From NCBI RefSeq assembly GCF_000526315.1, contig NZ_JAFV01000001.1, positions 930,001 through 994,000 on the forward strand: 64,000 nt of DNA, written 5' to 3'. This document shows positions 1,256 through 19,319 of this stretch, piece by piece. A program made the position numbers and the translations under genes. Each line of letters opens with the position of its first letter. Positions within the stretch are counted from its first letter, which is position 1. Below the pieces are notes generated by a model that was given only the letters and a program-made list of their open reading frames with translations, did no database searches and had not been told where the DNA came from. This stretch comes from Methylopila sp. 73B (GTDB lineage: Bacteria; Pseudomonadota; Alphaproteobacteria; Rhizobiales; Methylopilaceae).

Positions 1256-1277
1256 AAGAGTGGCTGGGGGACCTGGA
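1256..1277. repeat. attL core (22-bp direct repeat)
   Basis: Identical to 19298-19319. It contains GGCTGGGGGACCTGGA, the last bases of the tRNA-Gln gene read on the opposite strand. The sequence beyond 1277 no longer matches the tRNA, so this is the partial copy left on the integrase side. Confidence 0.93.
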
Positions 1278-1333
1278 GTTTACGAATGATCGGCCGAGAG
1301 GCGAGAAGCACTAGAGAATGAGCGGTTTCATTG

Positions 1334-1371
1334 CGGTAGCAGAAGAATTTTGCTACTGTTAGATGCTACCG
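1334..1371. promoter_or_regulatory. Left cluster of putative integrase arm-type sites
   Basis: Three related octamers: CGGTAGCA at 1334-1341 (inverted TGCTACCG), TGCTACTG at 1351-1358 and TGCTACCG at 1364-1371. The same octamer recurs at 19215-19248, at a similar distance inside the right att core. This mirrored arrangement is what arm-type binding sites of a tyrosine integrase or its excisionase look like. The cluster also sits just upstream of the integrase start, so it could mediate autoregulation. Confidence 0.6.
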
Positions 1372-1397
1372 ATTGCCCTCGTTAAGGACTCCCAGCT

Positions 1398-3146
1398 TTG
1401 CCTCGATCCGCCAGCCCTGTCCGCCGCGAAGGTGGCCAGTATGCCCTTCGCATCAACATCCCCGTGGACCTTCAGCGGCACTACCCATCTAAGACCGGCA
1501 CGCCTCGGTCTCAGATTTGGGTGAGCCTCAAGACGACGGACCTCAAGCAGGCGAAGACGCTCGCGAACGGGGTCCGGTCGAAGTTCGATCGGGAGTTTGC
1601 CGCTAGACGCCGTGAAGTCACGCCTCTCGATGCCGTCGAGCTCCAGGGGATCGCGCATAGGACGTATGGGGCCGAGGAGCGCCTGGACGATCACTTCCGC
1701 CTTACTCCGCCGACCGAAGCGGACTTGAGCGCGATCTGGCGCGTGATCGAAAAGGAATACGGACCGGACAGCCTCGCCGCTCGCGGGATCATGCGCCTCG
1801 TCGAGGAGCGGGTCCAAAGCCCGACGCAGTATCGGCAGGAGCACGCGGCCGAGCTCGCGGCGGAGGTTGGACGTTATCTGACGCGGACCGTGGATGCGGA
1901 GGTGGCCGAGGTCGTTCGCGAGCTTGGCCTGGGCGCGGCGCCGGGAAGCGAGGATTGGAAGCGGATCGCTCATGCGCTCCAGCGCGGTAAGCTCGCGGCC
2001 TACAAGACGGCCGACGAGCGCGACGCCGGCGACTGGTCTGGCGAGGTCCGCGACCCAATGGTCAAGGCGCCGGCCGTGCAGCGCGCGAAGGCCGGGGAGG
2101 GGATCATGGACCTCTTCGCGCAGTATGAGGCCGAGAACCCCGACAACGTCCGTCCCGACACGCTGCGTCAGACGCGCGACGCCGTTCGGCTGTTCGTTGA
2201 GAGCCTGCCGCCGCGGTCGTCGGTGACGGCCATCAACAAGGCGGCGGTGCGCGAATGGAAGGCGCTCTTGATCAGGTTCCCCGTCCGCGCGGTCGACACG
2301 GTCGCGTTCAAGGGAATGGCGATCCGGGACGTGGTCGCTGAGAACGATCGGCTCGGAAAGCCGACGATCTCGAAGAAGACGATCAATCGCTACCTGTCAT
2401 CGCTCGGCGCGTTCTCGAACTGGCTTGTGGTGGTGCGGGGCCTCCTGGACGCCAACCCCGTTCGTGACCTCTACCTTAAGATCGACAAGAGCCGTGTGAC
2501 GACGCTGCCGTTCACTGTCGACCAGATGAAGGTGATCTTCTCCTCAGACGCCTTCACTGCGCCGGATGCGGTGCGGGATCACACCTTCTGGCTTCCCTTG
2601 GTGATGTTGTTCTCAGGTGCGCGGCCGGGTGAGCTCGCCCAGCTTGCGGTCGCGGATGTGCGCCAGATGCACGGCGTCAACGTGCTGCACATCACGACCG
2701 AGGGCGCGAAGGACAAGACGTTGAAGACCCGCGGCAGCGCCCGTGTGGTGCCGGTTCATCCGGAGCTCGTGCGGCTTGGCTTCCTGGAGCATGTCGAAGC
2801 GATGCGAGCCGCCGGCCAGGGCCGGGTGTTCCCGGAGGCGACGCGCAATGCGCGCGGCCAGTGGGTCGACAAGTTCTCGCGGGAGTTTCCGCGTCTGCTG
2901 GCGCGCCTGAAGGTGAAGGACGGTCGAGGCCTGTCGCTCTACAGCTACCGTCATACAGCCGCCGACGCTTTCCGCCGGGCTGGGTATGCCGACGAGGCGT
3001 TTGGGCCTCTCCTGGGCCATGCCAAGGCTTCCACGACCGGTCTCTATGGAACCGAGAGCCAGGGGACGATCGCGCAGCGTGCGGCGATGATTGACGCGAT
3101 TGCTTATGAGGGGCTCGACCTGTCGCATCTCTATCCGGCGCCGTAG
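1398..3146 (+). CDS. int: Tyrosine recombinase / phage integrase
   Basis: A 582-residue site-specific recombinase that would join attP to tRNA-Gln and excise the element. The N-terminal part (RINIPVDLQRHYPSK) resembles the DUF6538 arm-binding domain of proteobacterial integrases. A core-binding region lies around residues 230-360. The catalytic domain shows the first Arg in FSGARPGELAQL, the H-x-x-R box in YSYRHTAADAFR, and the second His and nucleophilic Tyr in LLGHAKASTTGLYG. TTG at 1398 is preceded by AAGGA at 1384-1388 with 9-nt spacing, which supports this start. It lies directly inside attL, transcribed into the element. Confidence 0.95.
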   Translation: MPRSASPVRREGGQYALRINIPVDLQRHYPSKTGTPRSQIWVSLKTTDLKQAKTLANGVRSKFDREFAARRREVTPLDAVELQGIAHRTYGAEERLDDHFRLTPPTEADLSAIWRVIEKEYGPDSLAARGIMRLVEERVQSPTQYRQEHAAELAAEVGRYLTRTVDAEVAEVVRELGLGAAPGSEDWKRIAHALQRGKLAAYKTADERDAGDWSGEVRDPMVKAPAVQRAKAGEGIMDLFAQYEAENPDNVRPDTLRQTRDAVRLFVESLPPRSSVTAINKAAVREWKALLIRFPVRAVDTVAFKGMAIRDVVAENDRLGKPTISKKTINRYLSSLGAFSNWLVVVRGLLDANPVRDLYLKIDKSRVTTLPFTVDQMKVIFSSDAFTAPDAVRDHTFWLPLVMLFSGARPGELAQLAVADVRQMHGVNVLHITTEGAKDKTLKTRGSARVVPVHPELVRLGFLEHVEAMRAAGQGRVFPEATRNARGQWVDKFSREFPRLLARLKVKDGRGLSLYSYRHTAADAFRRAGYADEAFGPLLGHAKASTTGLYGTESQGTIAQRAAMIDAIAYEGLDLSHLYPAP

Positions 3147-3240
3147 TCTTCTCCGCGGCGCAGCCGCGACGAGCGGAGCGTAGCGAGCGAGTACGACAAT
3201 GCGGGTCGAACTCCGGCTCGTGAGGGGGCGTAGCTAACAG

Positions 3241-3729
3241 ATGACAATCGGTTTGGTGATAGCTGGCGCTTTGCTCGGTTTCGTATACGGCCTTCTGAAA
3301 ATAGACGGCATTCAGCGTATCGTTGATAAAGGAAATCTGTGGAACGCAAAGAGGTTACGCTTACGCGCCGTTAAGTTGATCGATATCTTGCGAGGTCCCC
3401 GGTTTGTGGACATGATGAAAACATATCCTTGGTGGGATATTTCAGATCAAGTCTACGTAGGTCGACGGGTGATCACGCCGCTAACCATTCGTGCCGAGCA
3501 AACTAGCTTAAATATGGCGCGCATGGCCGCGAAAATGCCCACACAGCAAGTTTGGACGCAGCCCTATGGAAGATCTGAGATATTACGCAGTTACGATGAA
3601 GTGATATCTTGTCTGGAGGGTTACATCTCAGACCCTGAAAGATACGAGACTAAGCTCCGAACGGGTGCTGAAATATTATTCCTTTTTGCGATCTGCTTGA
3701 TCACTATTGCATTGGGGGTCACTGCGTAG
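3241..3729 (+). CDS. AT-rich prophage cargo, two-pass membrane protein of unknown function
   Basis: A 162-residue protein with a hydrophobic helix at each end: about residues 3-20 (GLVIAGALLGFVYGLL) and 144-160 (ILFLFAICLITIALGV). A soluble, fairly basic middle portion lies between. I do not recognise a family. By hand count the first 120 bases are about 47% G+C, clearly lower than the surrounding genes, which suggests separate acquisition. It sits between the integrase and the DpnI-like gene, where lysogenic-conversion genes are often found. A role in superinfection exclusion or defence is possible from position and topology only. It starts at ATG 3241. Confidence 0.7.
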   Translation: MTIGLVIAGALLGFVYGLLKIDGIQRIVDKGNLWNAKRLRLRAVKLIDILRGPRFVDMMKTYPWWDISDQVYVGRRVITPLTIRAEQTSLNMARMAAKMPTQQVWTQPYGRSEILRSYDEVISCLEGYISDPERYETKLRTGAEILFLFAICLITIALGVTA

Positions 3730-3752
3730 CGAAGTTAGTGAAAGCAGTTAGC

Positions 3753-4202
3753 TTAGATCAGCCTCACGAACGCGGCGCGCACGGCCCGCAGATCATAGTG
3801 AAATCCAGTCCAGCCGGCCCGTCGCGCTGTAGTGCTGAGGGGGTTCCTGGGCTTGAACATGGCCGGCGCCTGGAGGTCCGCGGACAGGTAGTAGATGGCG
3901 TGCGTGACGGGCTCGACGGTCGCCAGCACGAGGAACAGCGGGAAGTAGATCGCCGCCTCCATGCGCTCCCGCTGCGGACCCCATGCGGCGCCCATCACCT
4001 GCGCCGGCACGACCGAGATGTCTTTGACCGTGGCGGCCTTCACCTGGGCGAGGTAGCCGCAGAAGTCGCAGATCACGTCCGCGCACTTGAAGTTGGTCGG
4101 GAGCCGGACGAGGGTCCGCATGCGCTTGCAACGCGGACACGAGCACTGCTTGACGACGCGCTCTTCCCCGAATGCGCCTAAGTTCTGACGAGCGGTCGCC
4201 AT
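3753..4202 (-). CDS. DpnI-type catalytic domain protein (methyl-directed restriction nuclease-like)
   Basis: A 149-residue protein recognisable as the DpnI catalytic domain. A Cys cluster (CSCPRC, residues 20-25) and CDFCG (45-49) form the probable zinc site. The PD-(D/E)XK-like centre aligns as D42, Q53 and K55, with the same spacing as D53, E64 and K66 of DpnI, so the middle acidic residue is Gln here. TARRAGW (125-131) near the end is the other DpnI hallmark. DpnI (about 254 aa) also has a C-terminal winged-helix that reads GmATC; this protein ends before it. ATG at 4202 has AAGGG 5 nt upstream. DpnI cuts methylated GATC; whether this protein cuts, and what methylation it reads, is unknown. 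Probably a defence moron. Confidence 0.85.
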   Translation of the reverse strand: MATARQNLGAFGEERVVKQCSCPRCKRMRTLVRLPTNFKCADVICDFCGYLAQVKAATVKDISVVPAQVMGAAWGPQRERMEAAIYFPLFLVLATVEPVTHAIYYLSADLQAPAMFKPRNPLSTTARRAGWTGFHYDLRAVRAAFVRLI

Positions 4203-4281
4203 CCACACCCTTAACGGCTTCAGCCTCGAAAAAGTCTGAGACGCCCCGGAGCCTGTCGACTCGGAAGAGGAGGATACCGTG

Positions 4282-4461
4282 GTGAACACAACCAATAGCA
4301 AGCCCTCAGCGTCGGCGCGTTGGGCATCGAAATGCAGCATCGAAGGGTATGCGTGCGTGGTCTGTGGCAATGACCCGCTCTACGACGAACGCGACATTTT
4401 CTTCGAGACCGGATGCTGCGGCGCCCACGCTGCGCAGGCAGAGAAGGCGCTCGACGAGTAG
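4282..4461 (+). CDS. Small cysteine-rich protein, unknown function
   Basis: A 59-residue protein with Cys pairs in KCSIEGYACVVCGND and TGCCGAHA, suggesting a small zinc-binding fold. It has an unusually strong ribosome site, AGGAGG at 4268-4273. Two in-frame GTG codons follow at 4279 and 4282; the second has the better 8-nt spacing. It is divergent from the DpnI-like gene, separated by about 80 bp that must hold both promoters, and is closed by a perfect hairpin 10 bp after its stop. I do not recognise the family. The pairing with the nuclease may be functional (partner or regulator), but this is inference. Confidence 0.6.
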   Translation: MNTTNSKPSASARWASKCSIEGYACVVCGNDPLYDERDIFFETGCCGAHAAQAEKALDE

Positions 4462-4471
4462 GCAAACGAAA

Positions 4472-4495: not shown

Positions 4496-4524
4496 AGGTC
4501 GGTACGCCAATGCGGGTTGCCTTC

Positions 4525-4887
4525 TTAGGCGACGTCCCGATCGGCGCCGAGGCGGCCAGACTCAAACAGAAGCTCGGCGTGGGCGGCCTCGGGGCTGTCG
4601 AGCTCCTCGGGCGTCGCGTCCGGCAGGAAGGCCGTCCCGTCCATCTCGCCCAGGTCCACGGCCTGAGCGCTGCCCTCGACGGTGATAATCTTGCCGTCAT
4701 GACGGACGACATACCCGGCCGGATCCTTCTCCAGGATGGCCGGCTTGTCGTCGATATAGGTCAGGGCGCGGTCGATGCGCGGCTTGCCGTTAGACGGCTC
4801 CTCGGCGCGGATCTCGCCCTTGAGCTTGCCGTTCGCGACGTCGCGCCAAATCTCCTCAAAACGTTCGATCGTGATGCTGGTCGTCAT
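4525..4887 (-). CDS. Prophage hypothetical protein
   Basis: A 120-residue acidic soluble protein starting MTTSITIERFEEIWRDVANG. No recognised domain. It is the last gene of the leftward operon and ends just before the 4472-4495 hairpin. Its start lies 7 bp after the end of the long frame of the HUH-type gene, and AAGGA of that gene's last codons is 11 nt upstream and could serve as a loose ribosome site. The function is unknown. Confidence 0.6.
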   Translation of the reverse strand: MTTSITIERFEEIWRDVANGKLKGEIRAEEPSNGKPRIDRALTYIDDKPAILEKDPAGYVVRHDGKIITVEGSAQAVDLGEMDGTAFLPDATPEELDSPEAAHAELLFESGRLGADRDVA

Positions 4888-4894: not shown

Positions 4895-6451
4895 CTAGTC
4901 CTTGCTGATGGCCCTGCGCGACGGGGCCGGTGATGGCGCGGGTGCGTGTTGACGGGCGTCGTGAAGGGGCGGCCCGGTCGCCCTGGAGAGCCCACTAGGC
5001 GGCCCGCGCGAGCTCGATGCGCCGGTCCCGGTCATGATCCTCAATGACGGCCTGGGCCATCCTGAACGCCATGGCGCCGGCCGCGTCCGCGAGTGCGATG
5101 CTGATGCGGTCCAGGTCCGCGCCGCCGGTGAGCGGGTCGGGCTCGGCGACGGCCGCGTCCAGCGCGTCGAGAACCTCATGGTGGTCCGGGAGGCCGGCGA
5201 GGCGAAGGACTGCGGCGCGGGCGTCGCGGGAGCCGGTGCCGGCGATGGCGGCGACCAAGCAGGCGTGACGGTCGTCGGCGAGATAGGTGAATGACATGAG
5301 GGGCGGCCCTGGTTCGGTGTTGACCAAGGGTTTGTGAGTCCGCCGACTCCGGTCGTCAAGCAGAAATGCGCCGTGCCAGCCAAATAGATTGAAGCATCAA
5401 TCAACTTTGATGGATGAGATGCCGCAACAGAGACTGACAATAATGTAAACTCGTCACGGAAAGCGGCATAGATTGCTTCGGATCGGCGCCGGACGTTGTT
5501 CGTAATCTTCAGCGCAGGGCCTGCGTAGCGCGAGGCAAGCCTGGAGGCGCCCAGGATGGCCCGGACGCCGGGCCGGCTCCAGAACGCGGCCTTCAGCATG
5601 TAGCTGGCCCAGCCGGCGTCGGGATTGGCGACCGCGCGAACCTGCCGAGCCGGCGCGTGGTAGTCGGCGCCCGCGGCAATCCTAAGGGAGGCCTTCATGG
5701 CGTCGAGCTCGTCGGCCGCGACCTGGACGACGCCATGGAGATGCAGCCGGCGATCATCGTGGACGTCGCGGCCGACGCGATCCTCCAGCACCAGCATGAA
5801 GCCGACGTCGGAACCAAGGACGCGGGCGACCCGCCGGCTGATCCAGTCCAGGGGCTTGGCCTGGGCGAGCGCCTGGGCCTCGACGGCGGCGCCGAGGTTC
5901 ACGGTGACGGCGTAGCAGGGGCCGGCTTCCACGATGGCGTAGAAAGCAGCGTCGGCCTTCATGGGCTCGCTGAGGTCGCGCCACGCCGCCGGGCGCCGGT
6001 GCTTGGTCGGGAAGGAAGCGAAGGACGTGAACCACGGCCGGAAGCTGGCGCGGGTCGTCCGGGTGGTCTTCTCGTCGATCTCTGGGAGAGGTGTGTCCAG
6101 GTCGATGAGGGAAAGGGTGTCCTCCCTCTTATAGACTGGACGACCCGGCTGGAGGGCCTGGAGGCGATCCTGGGCGAACCTATGAAAGGCTTGGGCGAAC
6201 GGGGCGTCCCGCATGGCCGAGACCGGGCGGGCTCGATTTACGGATCGGTCAACTTCGGATGCAGTGACGACCTTGCTGTCGACCTCGTCGAGGAGAGCGT
6301 TCAGGTCAACCTCAGGCTCCGGCTGAGCGTCCGCCACGAGGCGCGCGAGCACGGCCGCGGCCTGGGGCGACGAAAGGCGCGTCGGGTCGAGGCGCGCGAG
6401 GTCGGCATTGATCTTGTCGAGGATTGCCCTCGACGATCGGTAGGAAGACAC
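4895..6451 (-). CDS. HUH-type Rep-like endonuclease
   Basis: A GTG start at 6451 with AAAGGG 6 nt upstream opens a 518-codon frame. About the first 373 residues look like real protein and carry HUH Rep features: a beta-strand motif YAVTVN (180-185), HLHG (237-240, the His-hydrophobic-His metal site) and YMLK (284-287, the Y-x-x-K nicking motif). Such enzymes nick one strand to start rolling-circle replication, as GpA of phage P2 does. After about 5330 the frame stays open to 4895 but becomes Ser/Pro/Arg-rich and overlaps another ORF, so the true C-terminus may be near 5330 with a lost stop or frameshift. It follows the tape measure gene after a 211-bp gap in which I see only a T-rich tract. 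Confidence 0.65.
   Translation of the reverse strand: MSSYRSSRAILDKINADLARLDPTRLSSPQAAAVLARLVADAQPEPEVDLNALLDEVDSKVVTASEVDRSVNRARPVSAMRDAPFAQAFHRFAQDRLQALQPGRPVYKREDTLSLIDLDTPLPEIDEKTTRTTRASFRPWFTSFASFPTKHRRPAAWRDLSEPMKADAAFYAIVEAGPCYAVTVNLGAAVEAQALAQAKPLDWISRRVARVLGSDVGFMLVLEDRVGRDVHDDRRLHLHGVVQVAADELDAMKASLRIAAGADYHAPARQVRAVANPDAGWASYMLKAAFWSRPGVRAILGASRLASRYAGPALKITNNVRRRSEAIYAAFRDEFTLLSVSVAASHPSKLIDASIYLAGTAHFCLTTGVGGLTNPWSTPNQGRPSCHSPISPTTVTPAWSPPSPAPAPATPAPQSFASPASRTTMRFSTRWTRPSPSPTRSPAARTWTASASHSRTRPAPWRSGWPRPSLRIMTGTGASSSRGPPSGLSRATGPPLHDARQHAPAPSPAPSRRAISKD
4995..5297 (-). CDS. Prophage hypothetical protein overlapping the HUH gene frame
   Basis: A 100-residue protein starting MSFTYLADDRHACLVAAIAG, rich in Ala and Asp, without a recognised domain. 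A TTG at 5327 could extend it by 10 residues; neither start has a strong ribosome site. It occupies a different frame from the long HUH-type open frame that covers the same bases. The composition here is normal, whereas the other frame is Ser/Pro/Arg-rich in this stretch, which favours this as the real coding frame. Confidence 0.55.
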   Translation of the reverse strand: MSFTYLADDRHACLVAAIAGTGSRDARAAVLRLAGLPDHHEVLDALDAAVAEPDPLTGGADLDRISIALADAAGAMAFRMAQAVIEDHDRDRRIELARAA

Positions 6452-12039: not shown

Positions 12040-12358
12040 CGGGGGCCTTCGTGGTGGCACGGATTTCGAGGCCGCGGCGCCGGCCGATCTCGACCACGCC
12101 GAGGATGCCGTAGCTGCGGCCGGCGTGGCGGACGCGGTCGGTCTGGCGCACGCCCTCAGTCCAGCGGATGCGGAACAGGATGGTCTCGGCGGCGGCCGTG
12201 CCGGCGCCGGTGAGGAACTCGTCGGCGTCGGCCGTGACGACCTGGGCGCGCATGGTGGCGACCGTCGCCCAGGCGTCGGTCGGGACGCCCATGTCGTCGA
12301 TCGACGCGACGCCGGCGCGCTCGATGGTGATCTGGTGGTCCAGCTTTCCCGCCCTCAT
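12032..12358 (-). CDS. Head closure / head-tail adaptor protein
   Basis: A 108-residue protein starting MRAGKLDHQITIERAG, the standard beginning of phage head-tail joining proteins (SPP1 gp16-like, Phage_H_T_join). DAWATVATMRAQVV and the C-terminal RGLEIRATTK fit the small beta-barrel fold that plugs the connector under the portal. ATGA overlap with the upstream DUF3168 gene. Confidence 0.85.
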   Translation of the reverse strand: MRAGKLDHQITIERAGVASIDDMGVPTDAWATVATMRAQVVTADADEFLTGAGTAAAETILFRIRWTEGVRQTDRVRHAGRSYGILGVVEIGRRRGLEIRATTKAPDA

Positions 12359-12771
12359 GCGCGCGGCTCCTCGACCAGGACGCCCAGATAAAGGGTGGCG
12401 TGGCCGCGCTCGCCGTCGGGGTCGCGGCTGAAAACGACGCGCTCGACTTCCTGGTCCAGGACGCGAAGGCCGTCGCCGAGCACCAGCGGGGCGCGCAGCG
12501 CGGCGTCCACGTCGCCGGCGATGAGCTTGGCGTTGGCGGTTCCGCCGGTCTTGGTCCAGACGTCCAGCTTCATCAGCACGCGGACGTGCTGGCGGGCGAG
12601 CGTCATGTTCTCGCGCAGCGCCGTGCCTTCGCCGATCTGGACGCAAGGGAACGTCTCAGGCCGTGCGTGGGCGTCCACGATCTGCGCGGCCGGGACTGCC
12701 GCGACGACCGCGGCCGTGGCGATGAGGCGGGCGCGGAGGGCGCGCTGGAGGGCGACGGGGGCGAACGTCAT
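12355..12771 (-). CDS. DUF3168 tail-terminator-like protein
   Basis: A 138-residue protein. LQRALRARLIATAAVVAAVP and QHVRVLMKLDVWTKTGG followed by AKLIAGDVDAALRAP are characteristic of DUF3168 proteins, which act at the head-tail joint or tail terminus. It lies in its usual place beside the HK97 gp10-like gene and overlaps it (ATGA). Confidence 0.85.
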   Translation of the reverse strand: MTFAPVALQRALRARLIATAAVVAAVPAAQIVDAHARPETFPCVQIGEGTALRENMTLARQHVRVLMKLDVWTKTGGTANAKLIAGDVDAALRAPLVLGDGLRVLDQEVERVVFSRDPDGERGHATLYLGVLVEEPRA

Positions 12772-13145
12772 CCCGCGAAGTCCTTCAAGGCCCGGTTCAT
12801 GGCGCGGTGGATCTGGCCTTCGCGGCGCTTGCGGAGGAGACGGAACGCCGGCCAGAAAAACGGCTCGGCGTCCGCGGTCGGGGTGCCGAACTCGACAAAG
12901 GTCGGGTAGTCGACGGCCGCGCCGCCGGCGACGACCGTGCGAGAGAGCTCGTCGGGGCCGGCCTCGACGCGGATGCTGGTCTCCAGGTCTCCAGTCTCGC
13001 CCTCGGGGGCGAGCGCCTTGGCGCCGGACGCCATCTCGTCGGCCGCCTTGTCGAGCGCCTTCGCGACCTCGGCCTTTACCTGGGCCGGAATGGTCTTAAG
13101 GAGGTCGCGGCGGATGGCGTCGAGCGCCGCCTTGTTCGAGCTCAC
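12768..13145 (-). CDS. HK97 gp10-family tail completion protein
   Basis: A 125-residue protein with a helical N-terminus, then DLETSIRV and VDYPTFVEFGTPTADAEPFFWPAF, the diagnostic motif of HK97 gp10-like neck and tail-completion proteins. It probably joins the tail tube to the connector. It overlaps the gene upstream by 4 bp, showing translational coupling. Confidence 0.9.
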   Translation of the reverse strand: MSSNKAALDAIRRDLLKTIPAQVKAEVAKALDKAADEMASGAKALAPEGETGDLETSIRVEAGPDELSRTVVAGGAAVDYPTFVEFGTPTADAEPFFWPAFRLLRKRREGQIHRAMNRALKDFAG

Positions 13146-13429
13146 GCGGCCGTCTCCGGCCAGCGGTGCGGCGCGATCAACTGCCAGAAGCCCAACGGAA
13201 GCTGGCGAAGGTCGACGCCGGCGACGGTGTCCTCACGGTGCTCATAGAACGACCCGACAAGAAGCCGGACGGCCTGCTTGATGCTGGCCGGTGATGCAGC
13301 CGTGATAGGCCCGACAAACTGCGACGTGAACTCCTCGGCGGCCTCGATGTAGTCGCCCAGGATCTCGTCGTCGGACGTGCCGGTGATGTTGAGGTGCGCC
13401 TTCACATTGGCGACGGTGATGGCGCTCAC
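13142..13429 (-). CDS. gp6-like head-tail connector protein
   Basis: A 95-residue protein starting MSAITVANVKAHLNITGTSD, with DEILGDYIEAAEEFTSQFVG and AVRLLVGSFYEHRED. This is the all-helical pattern of HK97 gp6-type connectors that form a ring under the portal. GTG at 13429 overlaps the upstream stop (GTGA). The longer upstream frame lies inside the HTH gene and is not used. Confidence 0.88.
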   Translation of the reverse strand: MSAITVANVKAHLNITGTSDDEILGDYIEAAEEFTSQFVGPITAASPASIKQAVRLLVGSFYEHREDTVAGVDLRQLPLGFWQLIAPHRWPETAA

Positions 13430-14100
13430 TGAAAAAATCCCAATTCGGCGGAAGTTTGCGCGGCGGGGAGCGCGCCGGTCCCGGCGATGACGGCCTGGGC
13501 GCGACCCACCCCCCGGTCCCTTTGACGCGGAAGCTCGGCCTGCGATGCGATCGCGCGAGCCATGGGCCATCCCTGCTGAAGGCGGGCGCGGAAGGTGTGA
13601 TAGGGGACGCCTGCTTGCGCGGCCCACTCGCGAACGGTGAGTGACTTGCCTGCGAAATCGATGCGCTTGCCTACCGGCGTCGAAACCGCACGGTATGCGT
13701 CCCAGCCGTTGCGAAGACGCATGACGATTGTTTGTCGCGCGATACCGCTGCGGATCGACCACTCGTCCAACGTGAGCCTGATACCCATCGTCTCCACGTA
13801 GGTGGGCGGCCGGTAGTTCGGGCGCCGTCGAATGATCGTCCGGCGGTTCGGAAGGGTCGGCTTGGTGGGCTTGGTATCCAAGTTGCCGACGCGAGGGGCG
13901 AGAAGACGTGTGACATTACGGCGGACGCGGTCCGGCTCCATGCCGGCCCTGATGCATGCCTCGTCGAAGCCTTCACCATCGAACAGGAAGCGACGGGAAC
14001 GAGCCCGATCTGCCGCCGGGATAGTGCGGTCGGTCGCCTTCAGAAGCATGGTCCAAAGACGGTCGGTAAAGGCGCGGCGGAACCCATAGGCGGAGGTCAT
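13426..14100 (-). CDS. Putative DNA-binding protein with tandem HTH-like repeats
   Basis: A 224-residue basic protein. Two clear repeats, LTLDEWSIRSGIARQTIVMR and LTVREWAAQAGVPYHTFRAR, each followed by a L-x-x-GW segment, look like the small helix-turn-helix modules seen at the ends of phage HNH and regulator proteins. The N-terminal third (MTSAYGFRRAFTDRL) has no clear family. It overlaps both neighbours by 4 bp, so it is made together with structural proteins, an unusual place for a regulator. It might guide packaging or control late expression. That is inference; the function is unknown. Confidence 0.65.
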   Translation of the reverse strand: MTSAYGFRRAFTDRLWTMLLKATDRTIPAADRARSRRFLFDGEGFDEACIRAGMEPDRVRRNVTRLLAPRVGNLDTKPTKPTLPNRRTIIRRRPNYRPPTYVETMGIRLTLDEWSIRSGIARQTIVMRLRNGWDAYRAVSTPVGKRIDFAGKSLTVREWAAQAGVPYHTFRARLQQGWPMARAIASQAELPRQRDRGVGRAQAVIAGTGALPAAQTSAELGFFQ

Positions 14101-14453
14101 GATGCGAGGCCGAAATCCTGCTCGATGGTGAGCGTGATGGTCTGGCGGTCGGCCTCGTCGAACGTGCGCTTCCACTTCTTGCAGGTGACGCGGATCGGGG
14201 TGGCTTCGCCGGGCGGGGTGTAGAGGAAGGCTTCCACGCCGCCGCGGGCTTGAAGGAAGGTGCGGATGGCGGCGGACTCGGCGGCTGTGAGGAGCTCGAA
14301 CTTGAGCTCCCAGCTTTCGCGGATGTGGTTCAGGCCGGCTGCGCTGCGCTGCGTATAGCCGTCGCCGAACTCGGCCTCGAACAGCTTGATCTTCGGCTCG
14401 GCGGACGCTCCGACGCTGGGCGCCTTGGGCGGGGTGAACGTGGCGAGCGCCAT
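14097..14453 (-). CDS. Minor tail protein (lambda GpM-like)
   Basis: A 118-residue protein with EAEFGDGYTQRSAAGLNHIR, FLQARGGVEAFLYTPPGE and VTCKKWKRTF, matching the Phage_min_tail (GpM) family. In lambda, gpM helps attach the tail-tip complex to the tape measure. Here it is the only recognisable tail-tip-side protein; partners such as GpL, GpK, GpI or GpJ are not seen. ATGA-type overlap with the HNH gene. Confidence 0.9.
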   Translation of the reverse strand: MALATFTPPKAPSVGASAEPKIKLFEAEFGDGYTQRSAAGLNHIRESWELKFELLTAAESAAIRTFLQARGGVEAFLYTPPGEATPIRVTCKKWKRTFDEADRQTITLTIEQDFGLAS

Positions 14454-14818
14454 CAGGCGAGCTCCTCGCGGATGCGGGCGCGGTGTTCCTCGCGCTGCTT
14501 GTGGCCGTCGTGACAGGGCTTGCAGAGGGACTGCCAGTTGCTCCGGTTCCAAAAGCGCCAGCGGTTGCCCTTGTGAGGGATGACGTGGTCGACGACGGAC
14601 GCGAGAGCGCCGCAGCGCCGACACGTCGGGTTGACCTGGAGGAACAGGTCGCGCTCGCGCTGCCACTCGGCGGTGTAGCCGCGGGCGCGGGCCGAGGGCC
14701 GGTTCTGGTCGTGGCGGGCCTTGCGGGCGCGATCGGTGAGGATCTGGCACGCGCAACGGGAGCCGGACGGAACGACGGCGCCGCAGTGACAGAAGCGGGC
14801 GGGACGGCGGGGCATCAT
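14453..14818 (-). CDS. HNH endonuclease
   Basis: A 121-residue HNH nuclease. The core is CRRCGALASVVDHVIPHKG, then NRSNWQSLCKPCHDGHK, with the zinc Cys pairs and the H-N-H residues all present. An extra N-terminal Cys cluster (CHCGAVVPSGSRCACQ) is common in phage members. Phage HNH proteins usually sit beside terminase and assist DNA cleavage during packaging; here it is about 2.4 kb upstream of TerS, in the tail gene block. It starts at ATG 14818, overlapping the stop of the 50-aa gene. Confidence 0.92.
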   Translation of the reverse strand: MMPRRPARFCHCGAVVPSGSRCACQILTDRARKARHDQNRPSARARGYTAEWQRERDLFLQVNPTCRRCGALASVVDHVIPHKGNRWRFWNRSNWQSLCKPCHDGHKQREEHRARIREELA

Positions 14819-14967
14819 TCAGCCCCGTCGAAAGAGGACGCGACCTTGCAGCCTTGAACCCATGAGAAACGCCGCTGAGGCGCATGGAGCCGGGCAGGCT
14901 GCTTTTCGTTGTTCGGCCGGTCGCGAGCCGTCAGAAAGGGGCTCCAATTCGAGAAAGGGGTGCGCAT
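14815..14967 (-). CDS. Small prophage protein, 50 aa, unknown
   Basis: It starts MRTPFSNWSPFLTARDRPNN. It is included because its ATG overlaps the stop of the tail chaperone gene (ATGA) and its stop overlaps the HNH start, exactly like the other genes of this tightly coupled operon. No domain is recognised; a second tail-assembly chaperone piece is conceivable from its position. Confidence 0.5.
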   Translation of the reverse strand: MRTPFSNWSPFLTARDRPNNEKQPARLHAPQRRFSWVQGCKVASSFDGAE

Positions 14968-15566
14968 CAGGCGGCCTCGACGCGGGTCGTCCATCGGCTC
15001 GCGAGGTCGCGCCACTTGTCGTCCAGGGACCGGGTGTCGGGCTTCTTCGGGGCGCCGCCGCGCTGTGCGTTGGTCCAGGCGACAAGGCCACGCCGGGCCG
15101 CCATGATCTCGGCGGGTGTGGCGTTCCAGGCGGTGTCGGGGCTCCAGCCGAGCCACCCTGTTGCGACCTCGAAGAGGTCGACGAGGTGCGCGGCGAAGCC
15201 GTCGCGCCGAGTACCGCTACGCGGGTCGCCTTCGGCGTCTGTTTGATCGTTTTGTTCGGCGGTGATGTCGACGCCGGCTAAGGCGTAGACGTGCGCCACA
15301 AGCGCGGGAATGAGGTGATCGACGCCCGCATAAAGACCATGCGGGGCGCCGAGGCTTTCGATGAAGGACGGGACGTCCGACCATGTCGACGAGTGCTCGC
15401 GCAGCACGTCGGCGATGGCGAAGAGGTCGCCGTCCTGGATCTTGGAAACGAGAACGGCGAGGCCCTCGTGACGGCGCTCAAGGCGGAGGGCAGCACGAAG
15501 GGTCGGCCGGAGCGTGATGCGCTCCAATCCGATCTTGATGGTGATCTCCTCCGCCGCGAGCTTCAT
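14967..15566 (-). CDS. Tail assembly chaperone-like protein
   Basis: A 199-residue protein encoded directly after the tail tube. The N-terminal half (EITIKIGLERITLRPTLRAA) resembles the GTA-type tail chaperone fold. The C-terminal half has WLGWSPDTAWNATPAEIMAA, a motif of phage tail assembly chaperones and GTA gp10-associated proteins. Such proteins hold the tape measure while tube subunits assemble. The order tube then chaperone is standard, although the tape measure is here far downstream. Confidence 0.75.
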   Translation of the reverse strand: MKLAAEEITIKIGLERITLRPTLRAALRLERRHEGLAVLVSKIQDGDLFAIADVLREHSSTWSDVPSFIESLGAPHGLYAGVDHLIPALVAHVYALAGVDITAEQNDQTDAEGDPRSGTRRDGFAAHLVDLFEVATGWLGWSPDTAWNATPAEIMAARRGLVAWTNAQRGGAPKKPDTRSLDDKWRDLASRWTTRVEAA

Positions 15567-15568: not shown

Positions 15569-16048
15569 TCAGGTGGCCGAAGGCGCGACTTCGATGATGT
15601 CGCCCACGATCTCGCAGGTGAACGTCTGCTCGACCATCGAGTCCTGCTCGCCCGTCTTCACGGGCGCGGCGTAGACCGACACGGGAAGATAAAAAAGCGT
15701 GCCGGTCGGGCTCGCGCCGGTGGCCGGCTTGTCGCCGAGCTCGAGCTTAAGAAAGACCGGGACGTCGGACTTGGCCGCTGTGCGGAGCGCGATCTGGCCG
15801 GCGTCGACGGTGTCGCGAACGCAAGTCACCTCGAAGGGGCCGGCGTCAACCGAGCCCTTGAACTTCTGCACGCGGCGCGTGCCGAGAACCTTGGCCTCGA
15901 TCTTGTTGTAGGTGTCGCCGAAGTCGCCGATGTTCGAGACGCCGCCGACCGCGGACCACGACAGGGCCTTATAGGCGACCGCCGTTGCGGGGAGGGTGGC
16001 GGAGGTCGCGACCGAGAGGACGGTCAGCGTATTCTGAATGCTAGCCAT
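15569..16048 (-). CDS. Major tail tube protein
   Basis: A 159-residue protein with a beta-rich pattern, YKALSWSAVGGVSNIGDFGD and KFKGSVDAGPFEVTCVRDTV, typical of lambda gpV-like siphophage tail tube proteins in alphaproteobacterial prophages. It would form stacked hexamers around the tape measure. ATG at 16048; two bases separate its stop from the chaperone gene. Confidence 0.85.
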   Translation of the reverse strand: MASIQNTLTVLSVATSATLPATAVAYKALSWSAVGGVSNIGDFGDTYNKIEAKVLGTRRVQKFKGSVDAGPFEVTCVRDTVDAGQIALRTAAKSDVPVFLKLELGDKPATGASPTGTLFYLPVSVYAAPVKTGEQDSMVEQTFTCEIVGDIIEVAPSAT

Positions 16049-16063
16049 GTTCTGAGCGCCTCC

Positions 16064-17608
16064 TTACGACGCCTTGAGCTTGATCTTGATGAGGGGCTCG
16101 GCGAGCGTGATCCGGCCGCCGACGCGCCGACGCGCGAGGAGGTTGATGATCCCGTTCTTCCAGCCGGTGAGGCGGTCGTATTCGGCCTCGAACCCGACGC
16201 GATCGAGGATCGTGTAGGAGCTCGCAAAGTCGCCGAAGATGATCGGCGAAGCGCCGGCGGTCGGGTTCGGCATATCGACCGCTTCCAGGACCGGGCGGCC
16301 GAGGATGGTCGACGGCTGGCCGCCGGCGAGGTTGCCGTTCTGCCAAATCAGGTTGCCGTCGCCGTCGCGAAGCTTGCGGACGACCGCCATCGTGGCCCGG
16401 TTCATGAGCCAATGGCCGCGCGCCGCGTAGGCGCTCGGGATGCTGTAGAACGCATCAATGAGGTCGTCGGTCGCCAACGTGGTCGCGGCGGTCGTGCGCG
16501 TGGCGACGTCGGCGGAGGTCATGACGCCTTCGGCCTGAGTGGTGCCGTTGCCGTTGACGAACCACGAGGCTTCGAGCTTGCCGAACTGCGTCGCGACGTG
16601 ATTGCCCAGCCAGGACGCGAGGTCGAACGCGGCGTCCTCATACATGACGCGCGAGACCGGCACGATCACGGCCATCTCGAACGGCTTGGCGTCGATGAGC
16701 TCGAACGTTGGTTCGGACTCGGCGGCGGCGCCGAGCTCGGTGCGGGAGGCCGGGACGACCTTGCTCACGAGACGGGGGAACTGCACGAGCGGGCCGCTCA
16801 TGGTGATCGCCGAGGCGATGGAGCGGATCGGCGAGAACTCGGTGATCTTTTCGATCACGGTCGCGCTGAACGTCGGGGGCGCCAGAACGCCGCCGGTGCT
16901 CGGAGCGCCGACAGCGAGGGTCTTAAGTTCGGTCGCGTCGCCGGTGTGGAGATAGACGTTGAACGCCTTGGTCTCCAGGGCGGCATCGGACTGTCCGGCG
17001 GCCGGAGCGGGGCGGGCGGCCTTCTTCTCCAGGTCGGCGAGACGCGCGGCAAACCCGCCGAGCGACTTCACCTCGTCGGCGACGCCGGCGATCTTGGTTT
17101 CCAGCGCCGAGATGTCGGGCGCCGCGTTCTGGTCTTCCACGGTTAGTTCCTTTTGATGCGCCGCGTGATCTGCGGACTTGAGGGACGTCACGCGGGCGCC
17201 GGCGTGAGCCGGAAAGGTGACGATTGAGACCTCGGCCAGATTGAGGGCTGAGATGGTCCGGCCGCCGGTTGTGCGACGGGCGAAATTCTTGATGGCGAAG
17301 CCGATTGAGACGCCGTTCATCGCGCCGGACTTGATGAGCGCGTGAGCTTCCTTGGCGCGGGCGACGGTCTCGACGAGAAGCCGGCCCTTCACGACGAGGC
17401 CCTGGGCGGTCTCGACGACACTTTCCCAGACGCCGATGGGCTCGCGCTGGTCGTGCATCCACAGGATCGGGAGCGGCCCGGCGGCGGTCGCGAACGCGCC
17501 CTTGGTGATGATGTCGCCGGTCTGGTCCGGCTCGTCGAAGATCCACGCGGTCGCGGTGATCGCGCCGGTGTCGTCGAGCGTGAACGCGGCCTTGGTCTCA
17601 AGCTGCAT
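16064..17608 (-). CDS. Fused prohead protease and major capsid protein
   Basis: A 514-residue fusion. Residues about 1-150 are an HK97-family prohead protease: AWIFDEPDQTGDIITKGAF, ILWMHDQREPIG (catalytic His) and MNGVSIGF (catalytic Ser). A linker or delta-like coiled-coil (about 160-205: ISALETKIAGVADEVKSLGG) follows, then an HK97-fold capsid protein (STGGVLAPPTFSATVIEKI, DLASWLGNHVATQFGKLEAS, AYAARGHWLMNRATMAVV). Many phages split these into two genes. The fusion means one translation product supplies protease, scaffold and shell in fixed ratio, with self-release required. It overlaps the preceding gene by 11 bp. Confidence 0.93.
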   Translation of the reverse strand: MQLETKAAFTLDDTGAITATAWIFDEPDQTGDIITKGAFATAAGPLPILWMHDQREPIGVWESVVETAQGLVVKGRLLVETVARAKEAHALIKSGAMNGVSIGFAIKNFARRTTGGRTISALNLAEVSIVTFPAHAGARVTSLKSADHAAHQKELTVEDQNAAPDISALETKIAGVADEVKSLGGFAARLADLEKKAARPAPAAGQSDAALETKAFNVYLHTGDATELKTLAVGAPSTGGVLAPPTFSATVIEKITEFSPIRSIASAITMSGPLVQFPRLVSKVVPASRTELGAAAESEPTFELIDAKPFEMAVIVPVSRVMYEDAAFDLASWLGNHVATQFGKLEASWFVNGNGTTQAEGVMTSADVATRTTAATTLATDDLIDAFYSIPSAYAARGHWLMNRATMAVVRKLRDGDGNLIWQNGNLAGGQPSTILGRPVLEAVDMPNPTAGASPIIFGDFASSYTILDRVGFEAEYDRLTGWKNGIINLLARRRVGGRITLAEPLIKIKLKAS

Positions 17609-17924
17609 CGGTCGCGCCCTGGTCCGGCGTGCCGAGCATGGCGGCCATCATGATGTCGCTGGCGAGCGCGTAGAGCTCGCCGAAGGGGATTGCGCCCGCG
17701 TAGGCCTCGACGAGCTCTTGGGCGCGCTTCGGGGTCTCGCCGCCTCCGATGAGGCCCAGGCGGACGGTCTCGCGGACTTCGGTCGTGGTGGCGTCGCTGG
17801 CGAACATGCGGCGGGCGGTTCCCCACGCGCCGGCCCCGACGAGGCGCTCGAACTCGACGAGGAGCGCCGGGGTCAAGGCGAAGGTGCGCTCGGCGTCGCC
17901 GAAGAACGCAGCGTGCGGGCTCAC
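17598..17924 (-). CDS. GTA gp10-like tail assembly chaperone (TAC_11 type)
   Basis: A 108-residue protein starting MSPHAAFFGDAERTFALTPA, then TTEVRETVRLGLIGGG and LVEAYAGAIPFGELYALASD. This resembles the gene transfer agent gp10 / Phage_TAC_11 family. In the Rhodobacter GTA the gene follows the tail protein; here it is between portal and capsid, far from the tube gene. GTG at 17924 overlaps the portal stop (GTGA). With the second chaperone at 14967-15566 the element seems to have two TAC-type proteins. Confidence 0.72.
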   Translation of the reverse strand: MSPHAAFFGDAERTFALTPALLVEFERLVGAGAWGTARRMFASDATTTEVRETVRLGLIGGGETPKRAQELVEAYAGAIPFGELYALASDIMMAAMLGTPDQGATDAA

Positions 17925-19153
17925 TGGCCGGCCTCCTGCACGCCGGTGGCGCCGTTGGACTGCGTGAAGGGGCTGGCGAGCGTGTCGCCGTCCGGCCGGG
18001 CCGGGAGATTTTCGCGGGTGCGCACTTCGTTGGCGGTCATGACGCCCGCGGCGCGGAGGCCCTGGTAGATCTTGGCGCGGGCCTCGCTGTCGCCCTGGAG
18101 GAGGCCGTCCAGCACGAAGTCGACGACGTGCGTCCGGCGCTCGTCGGGAGCGAGGAGCACGCGCGCGTAGGCGTCGCGCCACTGGCCAAGCCAATGGGCG
18201 AGCGTGAAGATCGCGAACTGTGTGCGGAGCTCCTCGGCGTTCTTGAACGTGGCCGAGGAGAGGTCGCCGAGGAGCGTCGGCGGGCAGTTGAAGGCGCGCG
18301 CGATCTCGACGACCTCGAACGAGCGGTTCTCAATGAACTGCTGGTCCGTGGACGTAAGCTCGTGGACGACGGGCTTCATGCCCTCTTCCCAGACGACGAG
18401 TCCGCCGCTGTTCTCGCCGCTGTGTTCACCAGCGCGAAAGTTCGCGAGCCGTGCGGCGGCCTTTTCAGAGAGATGCCCAGGTGCGGTGATGGAGGCCGAA
18501 GGCCGGAAACCCTTACGAAGCTGGCGACCGAAATGGCGCTCCATCGATAAAGAGATGGCGATGGCTTCGCGGGCCGCTGTGATGGGTGCGAGGCCCTTCA
18601 CGCCGTCGAGGGACGGTGCGGAGATGCGAAGAACGTCCTGGTGCGCGTAGACGGTCGCGCCGCCCTGGTGGCGATAGCGGTAGGCCGGCGCGCCGGTGTT
18701 GAGCGTCAGGATATCGACGGCGCGCGGGTCGAGCCGGATGAGCTCCAGGGGCGAGTCGTCGCCGCGGCGGGTGACGAGCGCGAAGCCGTCGCCGTGAAGG
18801 AGTGCGTCGCTGGTGATCTGGCGCCGGAGCTCGCCGGCGGAGGTCCAGTCGTTGGCCTCGTCGTGGGCGAGGCGGTAAGCGTCATGGTCGGGGGCCGGCT
18901 GCTTGCCGTCGTCGGCGCGCTCATAGACCTTGACCGGCAGATTTCCAATAGTCGTCGAGATGAGCGTGACCGCGGCCTTGACCGCCGGGACACGCATGGC
19001 ACTCTCGGGCGTGACGGAAGGTCCGGCTTCAGTAATGGGCGCGGAAAAAAGGTCGGCCCACTGTCCCGCTGCCGCTGCTACGGACGGGACAGGGGCCGAC
19101 TTGACTTCGGGAGCACGCCCGAAGAACTGAGAAAGACGAATTGAAATCGACAA
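17921..19153 (-). CDS. HK97-family phage portal protein
   Basis: A 410-residue portal with SAMRVPAVKAAVTLISTTIG, LRRQITSDALLHGDGFALV, GVKGLAPITAAREAI and RAFNCPPTLLGDLSSATFKN, all standard for HK97-type portals; the length is normal. The dodecamer forms the DNA gate of the capsid. The best start is TTG at 19153, with only a weak GGAA upstream. It is the first gene of the leftward operon and lies 150 bp from the tRNA-Gln 3' end, which is transcribed in the same direction. Confidence 0.95.
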   Translation of the reverse strand: MSISIRLSQFFGRAPEVKSAPVPSVAAAAGQWADLFSAPITEAGPSVTPESAMRVPAVKAAVTLISTTIGNLPVKVYERADDGKQPAPDHDAYRLAHDEANDWTSAGELRRQITSDALLHGDGFALVTRRGDDSPLELIRLDPRAVDILTLNTGAPAYRYRHQGGATVYAHQDVLRISAPSLDGVKGLAPITAAREAIAISLSMERHFGRQLRKGFRPSASITAPGHLSEKAAARLANFRAGEHSGENSGGLVVWEEGMKPVVHELTSTDQQFIENRSFEVVEIARAFNCPPTLLGDLSSATFKNAEELRTQFAIFTLAHWLGQWRDAYARVLLAPDERRTHVVDFVLDGLLQGDSEARAKIYQGLRAAGVMTANEVRTRENLPARPDGDTLASPFTQSNGATGVQEAGQ

Positions 19154-19214
19154 ATCGGGGTTCCGAAAGCTGGATACCCCATTATTTTACTTGACGGGAG
19201 GCCGGTGGCCAAAC

Positions 19215-19248
19215 TGCTACCGTCGCACGCTACCTAATATTGCTACCG
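19215..19248. promoter_or_regulatory. Right cluster of putative integrase arm-type sites
   Basis: TGCTACCG at 19215-19222 and again at 19241-19248, with a weaker CGCTACCT at 19228-19235 between. It matches the left cluster at 1334-1371. It lies 50-83 bp inside the right att core and upstream of the portal gene. Confidence 0.6.
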
Positions 19249-19297
19249 TTCGCCCCGCAGGCGAAGGTTGCAAATCCAAGAGAATGAAGGGTTTCAG

Positions 19298-19319
19298 AAG
19301 AGTGGCTGGGGGACCTGGA
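19298..19319. repeat. attR core (22-bp direct repeat)
   Basis: A perfect match to 1256-1277. Positions 19303-19319 are the 3' end of the tRNA-Gln gene including CCA, so integration keeps the tRNA intact on this side. Confidence 0.93.

What the first reader, a model, noticed from the sequence alone, without database searches (positions are those of the whole stretch)
1256..19319. Compact tRNA-Gln element with scrambled particle genes and no visible tip, lysis or repressor genes
Seen: a leftward operon in the order portal, GTA-type chaperone, protease-capsid fusion, tube, chaperone, HNH, GpM-like, HTH, gp6, gp10-like, DUF3168, head closure, TerS, TerL, tape measure. Known: HK97-like phages put TerS/TerL before portal and follow the tape measure with tip and fibre genes. 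Here terminase is next to the tape measure, tail and head modules are interleaved, and only GpM hints at a tip. Inference: a satellite that borrows a helper's tip and lysis, a domesticated particle, or a deletion product.
Basis: partly seen in the sequence, partly recalled or inferred. Interest (0 to 1): 0.7.

Follow-up and report, generated by a model that had tools for sequence, protein, structure and literature searches.

The report
Satellites lacking only the tail tip
An 18-kilobase mobile element in a bacterium, one of a large family with the same gene order, encodes a phage head and most of a tail but no recognisable host-binding tip, and its tail-ruler protein ends in a piece that matches phages with a full tip, which suggests that it builds its own particle and borrows only the tip from another phage.

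Summary
The element is an 18.04-kb insertion between a 22-bp repeat at the 3' end of tRNA-Gln; a relative has the empty site. The order is not scrambled: 95 non-redundant elements (window included) share the gene set, and 85 of the 88 with a tape measure keep the core order by script. Members occur in Hyphomicrobiales and Rhodobacterales, one as a 17.5-kb circular plasmid. Nineteen distinct repeat-bounded relatives span 15.9-18.9 kb; behind the tape measure they hold no gene over 403 aa except integrases. A deletion product is thus unlikely. The last ~60 residues of the tape measure are 55-60% identical to those of four 115-118-kb Rhizobium phages; in the two examined, lambda-type M-L-K-I-J tip genes follow, and only this stretch and gpM match the window. 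In 22 host genomes or records this C-terminus occurs only at the elements, and gpL was not found. Best reading: a satellite that makes head, neck, tube, tape measure and gpM, and docks on the tip of an incoming helper. Known capsid-forming satellites take the whole tail, so this is a new variant. Induction, packaging and tip capture are inferred; nothing was tested in the laboratory.

The parts
1256..1277 (.). left attachment repeat (attL), 22 bp
   Evidence: exact repeat of 19298-19319; joined flanks found uninterrupted in G235
1398..3146 (+). tyrosine integrase, 582 aa (start codon uncertain)
   Evidence: PF00589, DUF6538, phrog_1
3241..3729 (+). 162-aa protein of unknown function; hydrophobic ends by eye
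   Evidence: no family in PHROGs, Pfam or PADLOC
3753..4340 (-). DpnI / methyl-directed type II endonuclease-like cargo, 195 aa
   Evidence: PF06044 1.1e-13; PADLOC mREase_II 3.6e-6
4525..4887 (-). 120-aa protein, unknown
   Evidence: no family
4995..5297 (-). u2, small protein; a blast cluster of 27 genes in 27 loci behind the tape measure
   Evidence: clustered; sequences
5405..6451 (-). HUH-type Rep; frame stays open past the conserved domain, so the true 3' end is uncertain
6663..10013 (-). tape measure protein, 1116 aa, TMP_3 plus internal Phage_lysozyme domain
6663..6854 (-). tape measure C-terminus (last ~63 residues): predicted tip-docking segment
   Evidence: 55-60% identical to four Rhizobium phage tape measures, E to 3e-19; motif in 65 of 80 complete family tape measures
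10010..11635 (-). terminase large subunit
   Evidence: phrog_9 9e-121
11635..12060 (-). terminase small subunit
   Evidence: PF05119, phrog_83
12032..12358 (-). head closure/completion protein
   Evidence: PF05521, phrog_25
12355..12771 (-). tail terminator (gp17, DUF3168 type)
   Evidence: PF11367, phrog_176
12768..13145 (-). HK97 gp10-like tail completion/neck protein
   Evidence: PF04883, phrog_5
13142..13429 (-). gp6-like head-tail adaptor
   Evidence: PF05135, phrog_40
13426..14100 (-). HNH/HTH-like protein of unknown role
   Evidence: phrog_3377, phrog_1065
14097..14453 (-). gpM-like distal tail ring protein
   Evidence: PF05939 3e-25; 44% and 48% identical to gpM of RHEph10 and V1VFA-S
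14453..14818 (-). HNH endonuclease
   Evidence: PF01844, phrog_2323
14967..15566 (-). tail assembly chaperone (tentative)
   Evidence: phrog_7493 (no named function); PF09550 4.5e-4, below cut-off
15569..16048 (-). tail tube protein
   Evidence: phrog_158; no Pfam match
16064..17608 (-). prohead protease - major capsid fusion
   Evidence: PF04586 and PF05065
17598..17924 (-). GTA-gp10 / TAC_11-type protein
   Evidence: PF11836 1.5e-18
17921..19153 (-). portal protein
   Evidence: PF04860 1.3e-83
19298..19319 (.). right attachment repeat (attR) at the tRNA-Gln 3' end
19303..19376 (-). tRNA-Gln(CTG), the integration target
   Evidence: ARAGORN

Best explanation
It is an integrative phage satellite that makes almost a whole siphophage particle of its own (capsid, packaging motor, neck, tail terminator, tube, chaperones, tape measure and gpM ring) but no recognisable tail tip and no recognised lysis genes. 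Proposed course: a helper phage, most likely one that enters from outside, triggers excision; the HUH Rep replicates the circle by rolling circle; the satellite's TerS/TerL/HNH package its ~17-18-kb genome into its own heads; the C-terminus of its tape measure, with its gpM ring, docks on the helper's hub (lambda-type gpL, gpI, gpJ) and its own tube polymerises on that base. The particle then carries the helper's receptor-binding tip and leaves by helper lysis. Shown: anatomy, attachment sites, empty site, conserved order, no tip gene found, and the tape-measure/gpM match to tip-bearing phages. Inferred: induction, replication mode, packaging, tip capture, lysis by the helper.
For: Core order kept in 85 of 88 non-redundant elements with a tape measure (95 clusters from 122 loci among 280 sources). 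19 distinct repeat-bounded relatives (20 loci of 60 examined) span 15.9-18.9 kb and hold no gene over 403 aa behind TMP except integrases; Paracoccus marcusii plasmid, a complete 17,494-bp circle. Of 55 genes scanned, nearly all from behind TMP, the structural hits are one gpM and one TAC_11; 8 of the 18 PHROGs matched have no named function. Window TMP last ~60 aa 55-60% identical to V1VFA-S, RHEph10, RHph_Y2_11, RHph_N1_15; of 21 window proteins only TMP and gpM hit the fetched RHEph10 and V1VFA-S regions, where M-L-K-I-J-type genes follow TMP (Pfam for RHEph10). 64 of 117 family TMP genes or pieces match these two at both C-termini. In 397 genomes of the order the C-term profile gave 17 matches: 14 at elements, one contig-end fragment, two phages with M-L-K-I-J (one weak, 2e-8). 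In lambda gpM bridges tube and gpL/gpJ and the TMP C-term sits in the tip on gpI (PMC10721106, passages); TP901-1 lacking 30 C-terminal TMP residues shows heads only (PMC5099701, passages).
Against: No laboratory evidence of induction, particles or helper. The phages with the best C-terminus match come from Rhizobium, not this genus. gpL was found in none of 13 genomes of the genus and none of 22 host genomes or records, so no cognate helper is seen beside an element. gpM was labelled in only 22 of 122 loci and Rep in 16 of 122. 15 of 80 complete tape measures lack the motif, so other tips or decayed copies exist; the 52 rows of the conservation profile were chosen by that motif, which inflates it. 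The C-terminus is not shown to be exclusive to one tip: 25 Vibrio phage records are among the matches, those listed mostly over the whole stretch at about 35% (tip type not examined), and Mesorhizobium phage vB_MseS-P1 and Rhodobacter phage RcapNL, annotated with other kinds of genes behind TMP, match neighbouring tape-measure parts. Pfam recognised only 1 of 5 tip-region genes of a resident prophage, so an unknown small tip protein cannot be excluded by family search. For 58 of 122 loci no gene behind the tape measure was examined.
Confidence: 0.62

Rival explanations
1. A complete miniature siphophage whose tip is made by an unrecognised element protein (for example gpM, u2, the 146-aa family or the tape measure itself), needing no helper for its particle.
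For: The head-neck-tube-tape-measure set is otherwise complete; u2 and a 146-aa family recur behind the tape measure in 27 and 21 loci; Pfam saw only 1 of 5 tip-region genes of a resident prophage.
Against: In 19 distinct repeat-bounded relatives no gene behind TMP other than integrases exceeds 403 aa, and among the first five same-strand genes behind TMP in 48 loci only a Tn3 transposase does; the 146-aa family starts with a ribbon-helix-helix-like stretch (by eye) and stands on the other strand in 5 of 21; the tape-measure C-terminus matches phages with a full M-L-K-I-J tip; no recognised lysis genes.
Confidence: 0.14
2. The tip comes from a resident source in the host chromosome (a prophage or the alphaproteobacterial GTA), not from an incoming phage.
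For: G000 has two siphoprophages with what look like full tip cassettes; three of nine hosts of the second tail-bearing type have a second place with that type's C-terminus (not followed up).
Against: Resident tape measures in G000 end differently from the element's; the element's C-terminus type occurs only at elements in 22 host genomes or records, and gpL was found in none.
Confidence: 0.1
3. A deletion derivative or decaying prophage.
For: The closest relative (G312, same genus) is a relic with a cut TerL and no tape measure.
Against: The same content and order in 85 of 88 non-redundant elements with a tape measure; nearly constant size between repeats; dN/dS below 1 in every gene compared in two pairs.
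Confidence: 0.03
4. A domesticated particle or GTA that packages host DNA.
For: It shares GTA-type parts (TAC_11 protein, HK97-type capsid), and its named relatives are Alphaproteobacteria.
Against: Integrase, attachment repeats at several tRNA sites, an empty site in a relative, a plasmid form, Rep. The published Bartonella GTA gene list has another make-up (PMC3610622, passages).
Confidence: 0.05

Closest known systems
Capsid-forming PICIs (cf-PICI)
   Same: own portal/protease/capsid/connectors, TerS, TerL and HNH; described as dependent only on the helper for tails (PMC10690885 introduction, passages; original paper, Alqurainy et al. 2023, seen only as a citation). 39 non-redundant clusters in my set have neither tube nor tape measure labelled; two of these (L077, L078) are ordinary prophages of G000, many of the rest look like cf-PICIs.
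   Different: here tail tube, chaperones, terminator, tape measure and gpM are also encoded, so only the tip would be taken; the window has a HUH Rep, where PICIs usually have a primase (recalled)
cf-PISP satellite-plasmids of Vibrio
   Same: small circular satellite with own capsid genes and maintenance as a plasmid (PMC13230959, passages), like the 17.5-kb Paracoccus circle
   Different: those are described as lacking tail genes
MulchRoom/MiniFlayer satellite phages of Streptomyces
   Same: satellites that carry their own capsid and packaging genes, with virulent helpers (PMC10690885, passages)
   Different: key replication genes absent there; MulchRoom's tail is thought helper-encoded, MiniFlayer uses short fibres to ride on the helper
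Rhizobium phages RHEph10 and V1VFA-S
   Same: tape-measure C-terminus and gpM
   Different: 115-118-kb phages with M-L-K-I-J-type tip genes; no other window protein matched the fetched 24-kb regions
RcGTA and relatives
   Same: TAC_11 protein (GTA gp10 family) and HK97-type capsid
   Different: GTAs are host-domesticated and transfer host DNA (recalled; also PMC3610622 introduction, passages); this is an integrative element with its own integrase

Membership tests
capsid-forming PICI | small integrated island with integrase and att repeats (size range recalled) | tested here: met
capsid-forming PICI | own capsid, protease, portal, connectors, TerS, TerL, HNH | tested here: met
capsid-forming PICI | no tail genes; whole tail from the helper | tested here: not met
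   tube, terminator, tape measure and gpM present
capsid-forming PICI | AlpA/Stl-type regulator (partly recalled) | tested here: inconclusive
   phrog_66 excisionase/regulator in 4 of 135 genes scanned behind the tape measures; none matched in the window element
capsid-forming PICI | helper-dependent induction and chimeric particles | not testable with these tools
   needs a helper and particle analysis
temperate siphophage (complete prophage) | tip/hub genes behind the tape measure | tested here: not met
   positive control in RHEph10, Pfam matches for M, L, J and, below the cut-off, I
temperate siphophage (complete prophage) | lysis genes and repressor | tested here: inconclusive
   no family match, but short divergent holins or regulators could be missed; a lysozyme domain lies inside the tape measure
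gene transfer agent | no integrase, fixed vertically inherited locus | tested here: not met
   integrase, att repeats, several tRNA sites, plasmid form
gene transfer agent | packages random host DNA | not testable with these tools
   needs sequencing of packaged DNA
HUH Rep (rolling-circle initiators) | invariant HxH and catalytic Tyr | tested here: met
   H237, H239, Y284 invariant in 11 rows; PF23343 6e-4 for one relative, below cut-off
HUH Rep (rolling-circle initiators) | HUH fold | tested here: inconclusive

The most novel reading that the evidence does not exclude
A large class of satellites in Alphaproteobacteria parasitises only the tail tip. The element builds head and tail tube itself, and the last ~60 residues of its tape measure (with gpM) act as the docking code for the hub of a given phage lineage; a second tail-bearing type has another C-terminus, one example of which matches another phage (RHph_X3_2). 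Receptor choice would thus be taken whole from the helper while everything else is the satellite's own, and some 'incomplete prophages' of these bacteria would be intact satellites.
Probability: 0.5. Interest if true: 0.86.

Novelty: new variant of a known kind. Interest (0 to 1): 0.76.

Why it matters
Known satellites take whole capsids or whole tails. A family cut at the ring between tube and tip would show that phage particles can be shared at a third, finer joint, and would point to the sequence that decides the match: the end of the tape measure. That makes an old question, what joins a tube to a given tip, testable with natural pairs. It could also give a rule for predicting helpers from sequence, and it warns that short 'incomplete' prophages in Hyphomicrobiales (667 of 1165 prophages in non-animal-associated genera were called incomplete in PMC11080155, passages) may include intact satellites.

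Tried and rejected
Deletion product: not supported. Resident helper in the same genome: the two siphoprophages of G000 have other tape-measure ends and a shared tip cassette. Whole-TerL comparison with phages: best listed identity 33%, no near phage relative. TAC_11 against phages: two weak Rhizobium matches. Glacial satellite phage-plasmids (PMC4490671, passages): mainly replication genes, not this. Bartonella GTA (PMC3610622, passages): other gene set. PMC11409702 (RcGTA origin): a word search for satellite, tail tip and tape measure found none. Foldseek for Rep gave no significant hit. The first PHROGs/Pfam scans of 135 genes behind TMP listed only 25 of 100 and of 80 families, so they were repeated on 55 genes, for which all families are listed. 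Those 55 were made from 56 cluster representatives (u2, 146-aa and Rep clusters set aside): five left out (three of the pMPOP02 transposon region, two of L051), four added (window 4995-5297, window 3241-3729 on the other strand, two of the 146-aa family); Rep relatives were scanned. Three exceptions to the core order: in L089 and L177 the tblastn TerL match lies at 10001-11578 and 10001-11575, between gp17 and TMP, so the script's labels seem at fault; in L155 a stray capsid label lies upstream. TerL tree poorly resolved; the portal tree puts the window in a set of 11 tail-bearing rows (99/98). Gene calls in fetched loci come from my own simple caller trained on the window; short or AT-rich genes may be missed, and L089 and L177 were left out of the behind-TMP counts. 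Some of the 17-20-bp repeats could be chance. Novelty searches; no satellite with tube and tape measure but no tip was seen in those listings; subscription papers and bioRxiv are not covered.
Full report
WHAT IS THERE. The window lies in a 4.38-Mb genome of two contigs (G000). The element is the stretch between a 22-bp exact repeat at 1256-1277 and 19298-19319, the second copy overlapping the 3' end of tRNA-Gln 19303-19376. The flanks joined without the element match one uninterrupted place in another genome of the genus (G235, 93% identity, query 1-453 of 510), so the ends are right and the site exists empty. Inside lie an integrase and a 162-aa gene pointing right and one long leftward run of genes. 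Two things were added: a Rep behind the tape measure with an invariant HxH and Tyr, and a DpnI/methyl-directed endonuclease-like gene at the end of the run. The tape measure carries an internal lysozyme domain.

THE ORDER IS A FAMILY TRAIT. TerL relatives occur in 29 of 397 genomes of the order at E <= 1e-60. Of 280 sources, 122 hold portal, TerL and the TAC_11 protein; clustered at 97% portal identity these are 95 elements, the window included. Of the 88 with both TerL and tape measure, 85 keep portal < capsid < gp6 < head closure < TerL < tape measure by script; the other three look like labelling faults (see Tried and rejected). Named hosts include Propylenella, Kaistia, Rhodopseudomonas, Phyllobacterium, Devosia, Ruegeria and Pararhizobium, S. 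meliloti and Paracoccus marcusii, where it is a complete 17,494-bp circle with an annotated replication initiation protein. The window genome itself has a second copy at about 3.126-3.140 Mb.

SIZE AND ENDS. For 20 of 60 loci examined, 19 distinct elements, a direct repeat of 17-49 bp was found around the element; the spans are 15,887-18,888 bp, and the window's is 18,042. Most of the repeats read like tRNA 3' ends (by eye; several equal the window's tRNA-Gln site). Between these repeats the largest gene behind the tape measure, integrases apart, is 403 aa (a Rep), and the largest between the repeat and the portal, integrases apart, is 199 aa. That leaves no room for the usual hub genes (861 aa in the resident prophages; 1439 aa in RHEph10).

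NO TIP FOUND. 64 of the 122 loci (54 clusters) have called genes behind the tape measure and were examined; the other 58 were not, most of them because the locus ends there. Among the first five same-strand genes in 48 loci (126 genes) the longest are 403, 398, 398 and 386 aa, apart from a 992-aa Tn3 transposase in pMPOP02. A scan of 55 genes found DNA methylase, Vsr, DpnI, HTH_17, transglutaminase-like, two DUFs, one gpM and one TAC_11, but no named tip or lysis family; 8 of the 18 PHROGs matched have no named function. Control: the same Pfam search of RHEph10 matched gpM, gpL and gpJ, gpI just below its cut-off, and a Prok-JAB domain in the K position; but of five tip-region genes in a resident prophage of G000 it saw one, so the size argument matters more than the family argument.

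THE TAPE-MEASURE END POINTS TO A TIP THAT IS NOT THERE. Of 80 complete tape measures in the family (some redundant), 65 end in an [R/K]PG-type motif, and in the 52 non-redundant ones the C-terminal columns are among the best conserved of the protein (mean pairwise identity 0.36 in the last 60 columns against 0.26 overall; rows chosen by the motif, which inflates this). The window's last ~60 residues are 55-60% identical to those of Rhizobium phages V1VFA-S, RHEph10, RHph_Y2_11 and RHph_N1_15 (E to 3e-19). Against the 24-kb structural regions fetched from V1VFA-S and RHEph10, only two of the window's 21 proteins match at E <= 0.01: the tape-measure C-terminus (59% over 64 aa to RHEph10; 47% over 101 aa to V1VFA-S) and gpM (44% and 48%). 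In RHEph10 the tape measure is followed by M, L, a K-like protein, I and J, and V1VFA-S has the same layout by annotation. 64 of 117 family tape-measure genes or pieces match these two phages within 25 residues of both C-termini. Conversely, a profile of this C-terminus in 397 genomes of the order gave 17 matches in 16 genomes: 14 at elements, one fragment at a contig end (G245, perhaps the rest of that genome's element), and two phages: a 109,453-bp contig with a 95-bp end overlap in G250, with M next to the tape measure and L, K, I, J at the other contig end, and a prophage in G342 with M, L, K, I, J, whose match is weak (2e-8) and lacks the RPG motif. Against exclusiveness: 25 Vibrio phage records are among the matches, those listed mostly over the whole stretch at about 35% (their tips were not examined), and vB_MseS-P1 and RcapNL, annotated with other genes behind their tape measures, match neighbouring parts of it.

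WHERE THE CUT FALLS. In lambda the gpM ring joins the tube to the gpL/gpJ ring, and the tape-measure C-terminus sits inside the tip on gpI (PMC10721106, passages). In TP901-1 removal of 30 C-terminal tape-measure residues leaves only heads to be seen, and about 60 C-terminal residues are needed (PMC5099701, passages). The window element thus owns the parts from the gpM ring upward and lacks L, I, J (and K). gpM itself was labelled in 22 of 122 loci, mostly between HNH or chaperone and gp6, in some behind the tape measure; the others may take gpM too.

WHO THE HELPER IS. In 22 host genomes or records the C-terminus profile gives 23 matches, all at elements by position (two in G000), and Phage_tail_L gives none; in the genus 0 of 13. 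G000's two siphoprophages end their tape measures differently. I infer a helper that comes from outside, of the M-L-K-I-J type; virulence of the helper is a guess.

A GRADED SERIES. Of 77 further clusters without the TAC_11 label, 39 have neither tube nor tape measure labelled; two of these are G000's ordinary prophages, and many others look like capsid-forming PICIs (not checked one by one). 28 have tube and tape measure in a second arrangement, with no gene over 291 aa in the same-strand run of up to six genes behind it in one representative each, some of these runs being empty. The second type's tape-measure end differs; that of one member (L096) matches RHph_X3_2 (40% over 98% of 90 residues, E 1e-12). 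Three of nine of its hosts hold a second place with that end (not followed up).

SELECTION. Between the window and its relic relative, and between the second G000 copy and G142's element, every gene compared has dN/dS below 1 (0.26-0.72 and 0.11-0.76). The estimates are rough, some are high, and some genes look recombined.

WHAT IS KNOWN. cf-PICIs are described as encoding capsid and packaging and depending only on the helper for tails (PMC10690885, passages); cf-PISP plasmids of Vibrio likewise lack tail genes (PMC13230959, passages). I found no satellite with its own tube and tape measure but no tip in the listings. By that description this is not a cf-PICI, because the absence of tail genes is not met; it would work like one, one joint further down.

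LIMITS. All is sequence evidence. Replication by HUH Rep rests on motifs and a weak fold match. Regulation is unknown.

Noticed in passing
L076 (G000:C1:3934501-3954500): A further terminase-bearing element at a tRNA-Ala: HNH-TerL-two genes-capsid-protease-portal-int, capsid-only in the labels and with another order; looks like another satellite.
   Followed up: no
L330/L077/L328 and L326/L078/L327 (G000): Two siphoprophages share a tip cassette of nearly equal gene lengths (210-196-135-861-126-125-857/872 aa) and a tape-measure C-terminal part (70% over 279 aa), while their head genes differ: exchange of a tip cassette.
   Followed up: partly
L361, L365-L369 (G250:C37): A 109,453-bp contig with a 95-bp end overlap, a RHEph10-like phage genome, sits in a bacterial genome assembly.
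   Followed up: partly
L071 (G312); L246 gave the same values: Relic of the closest relative: portal to TerS called as open frames, TerL cut to 299 aa, no tape measure or integrase labelled nearby.
   Followed up: partly
L079:8780-10204 (G034): A 474-aa relative of the element's Rep with no terminase labelled in its 20-kb locus; perhaps another mobile element.
   Followed up: no
window:4895-6451 (-): The Rep frame has no stop for about 170-180 codons beyond the conserved domain and runs in another frame across u2; either a long tail or a lost stop.
   Followed up: no
L085:13635-16352: The S. meliloti element's tape measure is annotated as a D-alanyl-D-alanine carboxypeptidase and flagged as a vanY resistance gene at 30.7% identity: probably a peptidoglycan hydrolase domain in a tape measure, so the resistance label is probably false.
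   Followed up: no
L170:15953-17110; L082:9356-14180: Cargo in relatives: a C5 cytosine methylase, and in pMPOP02 a Tn3-family transposase with a recombinase and a MarR regulator.
   Followed up: no
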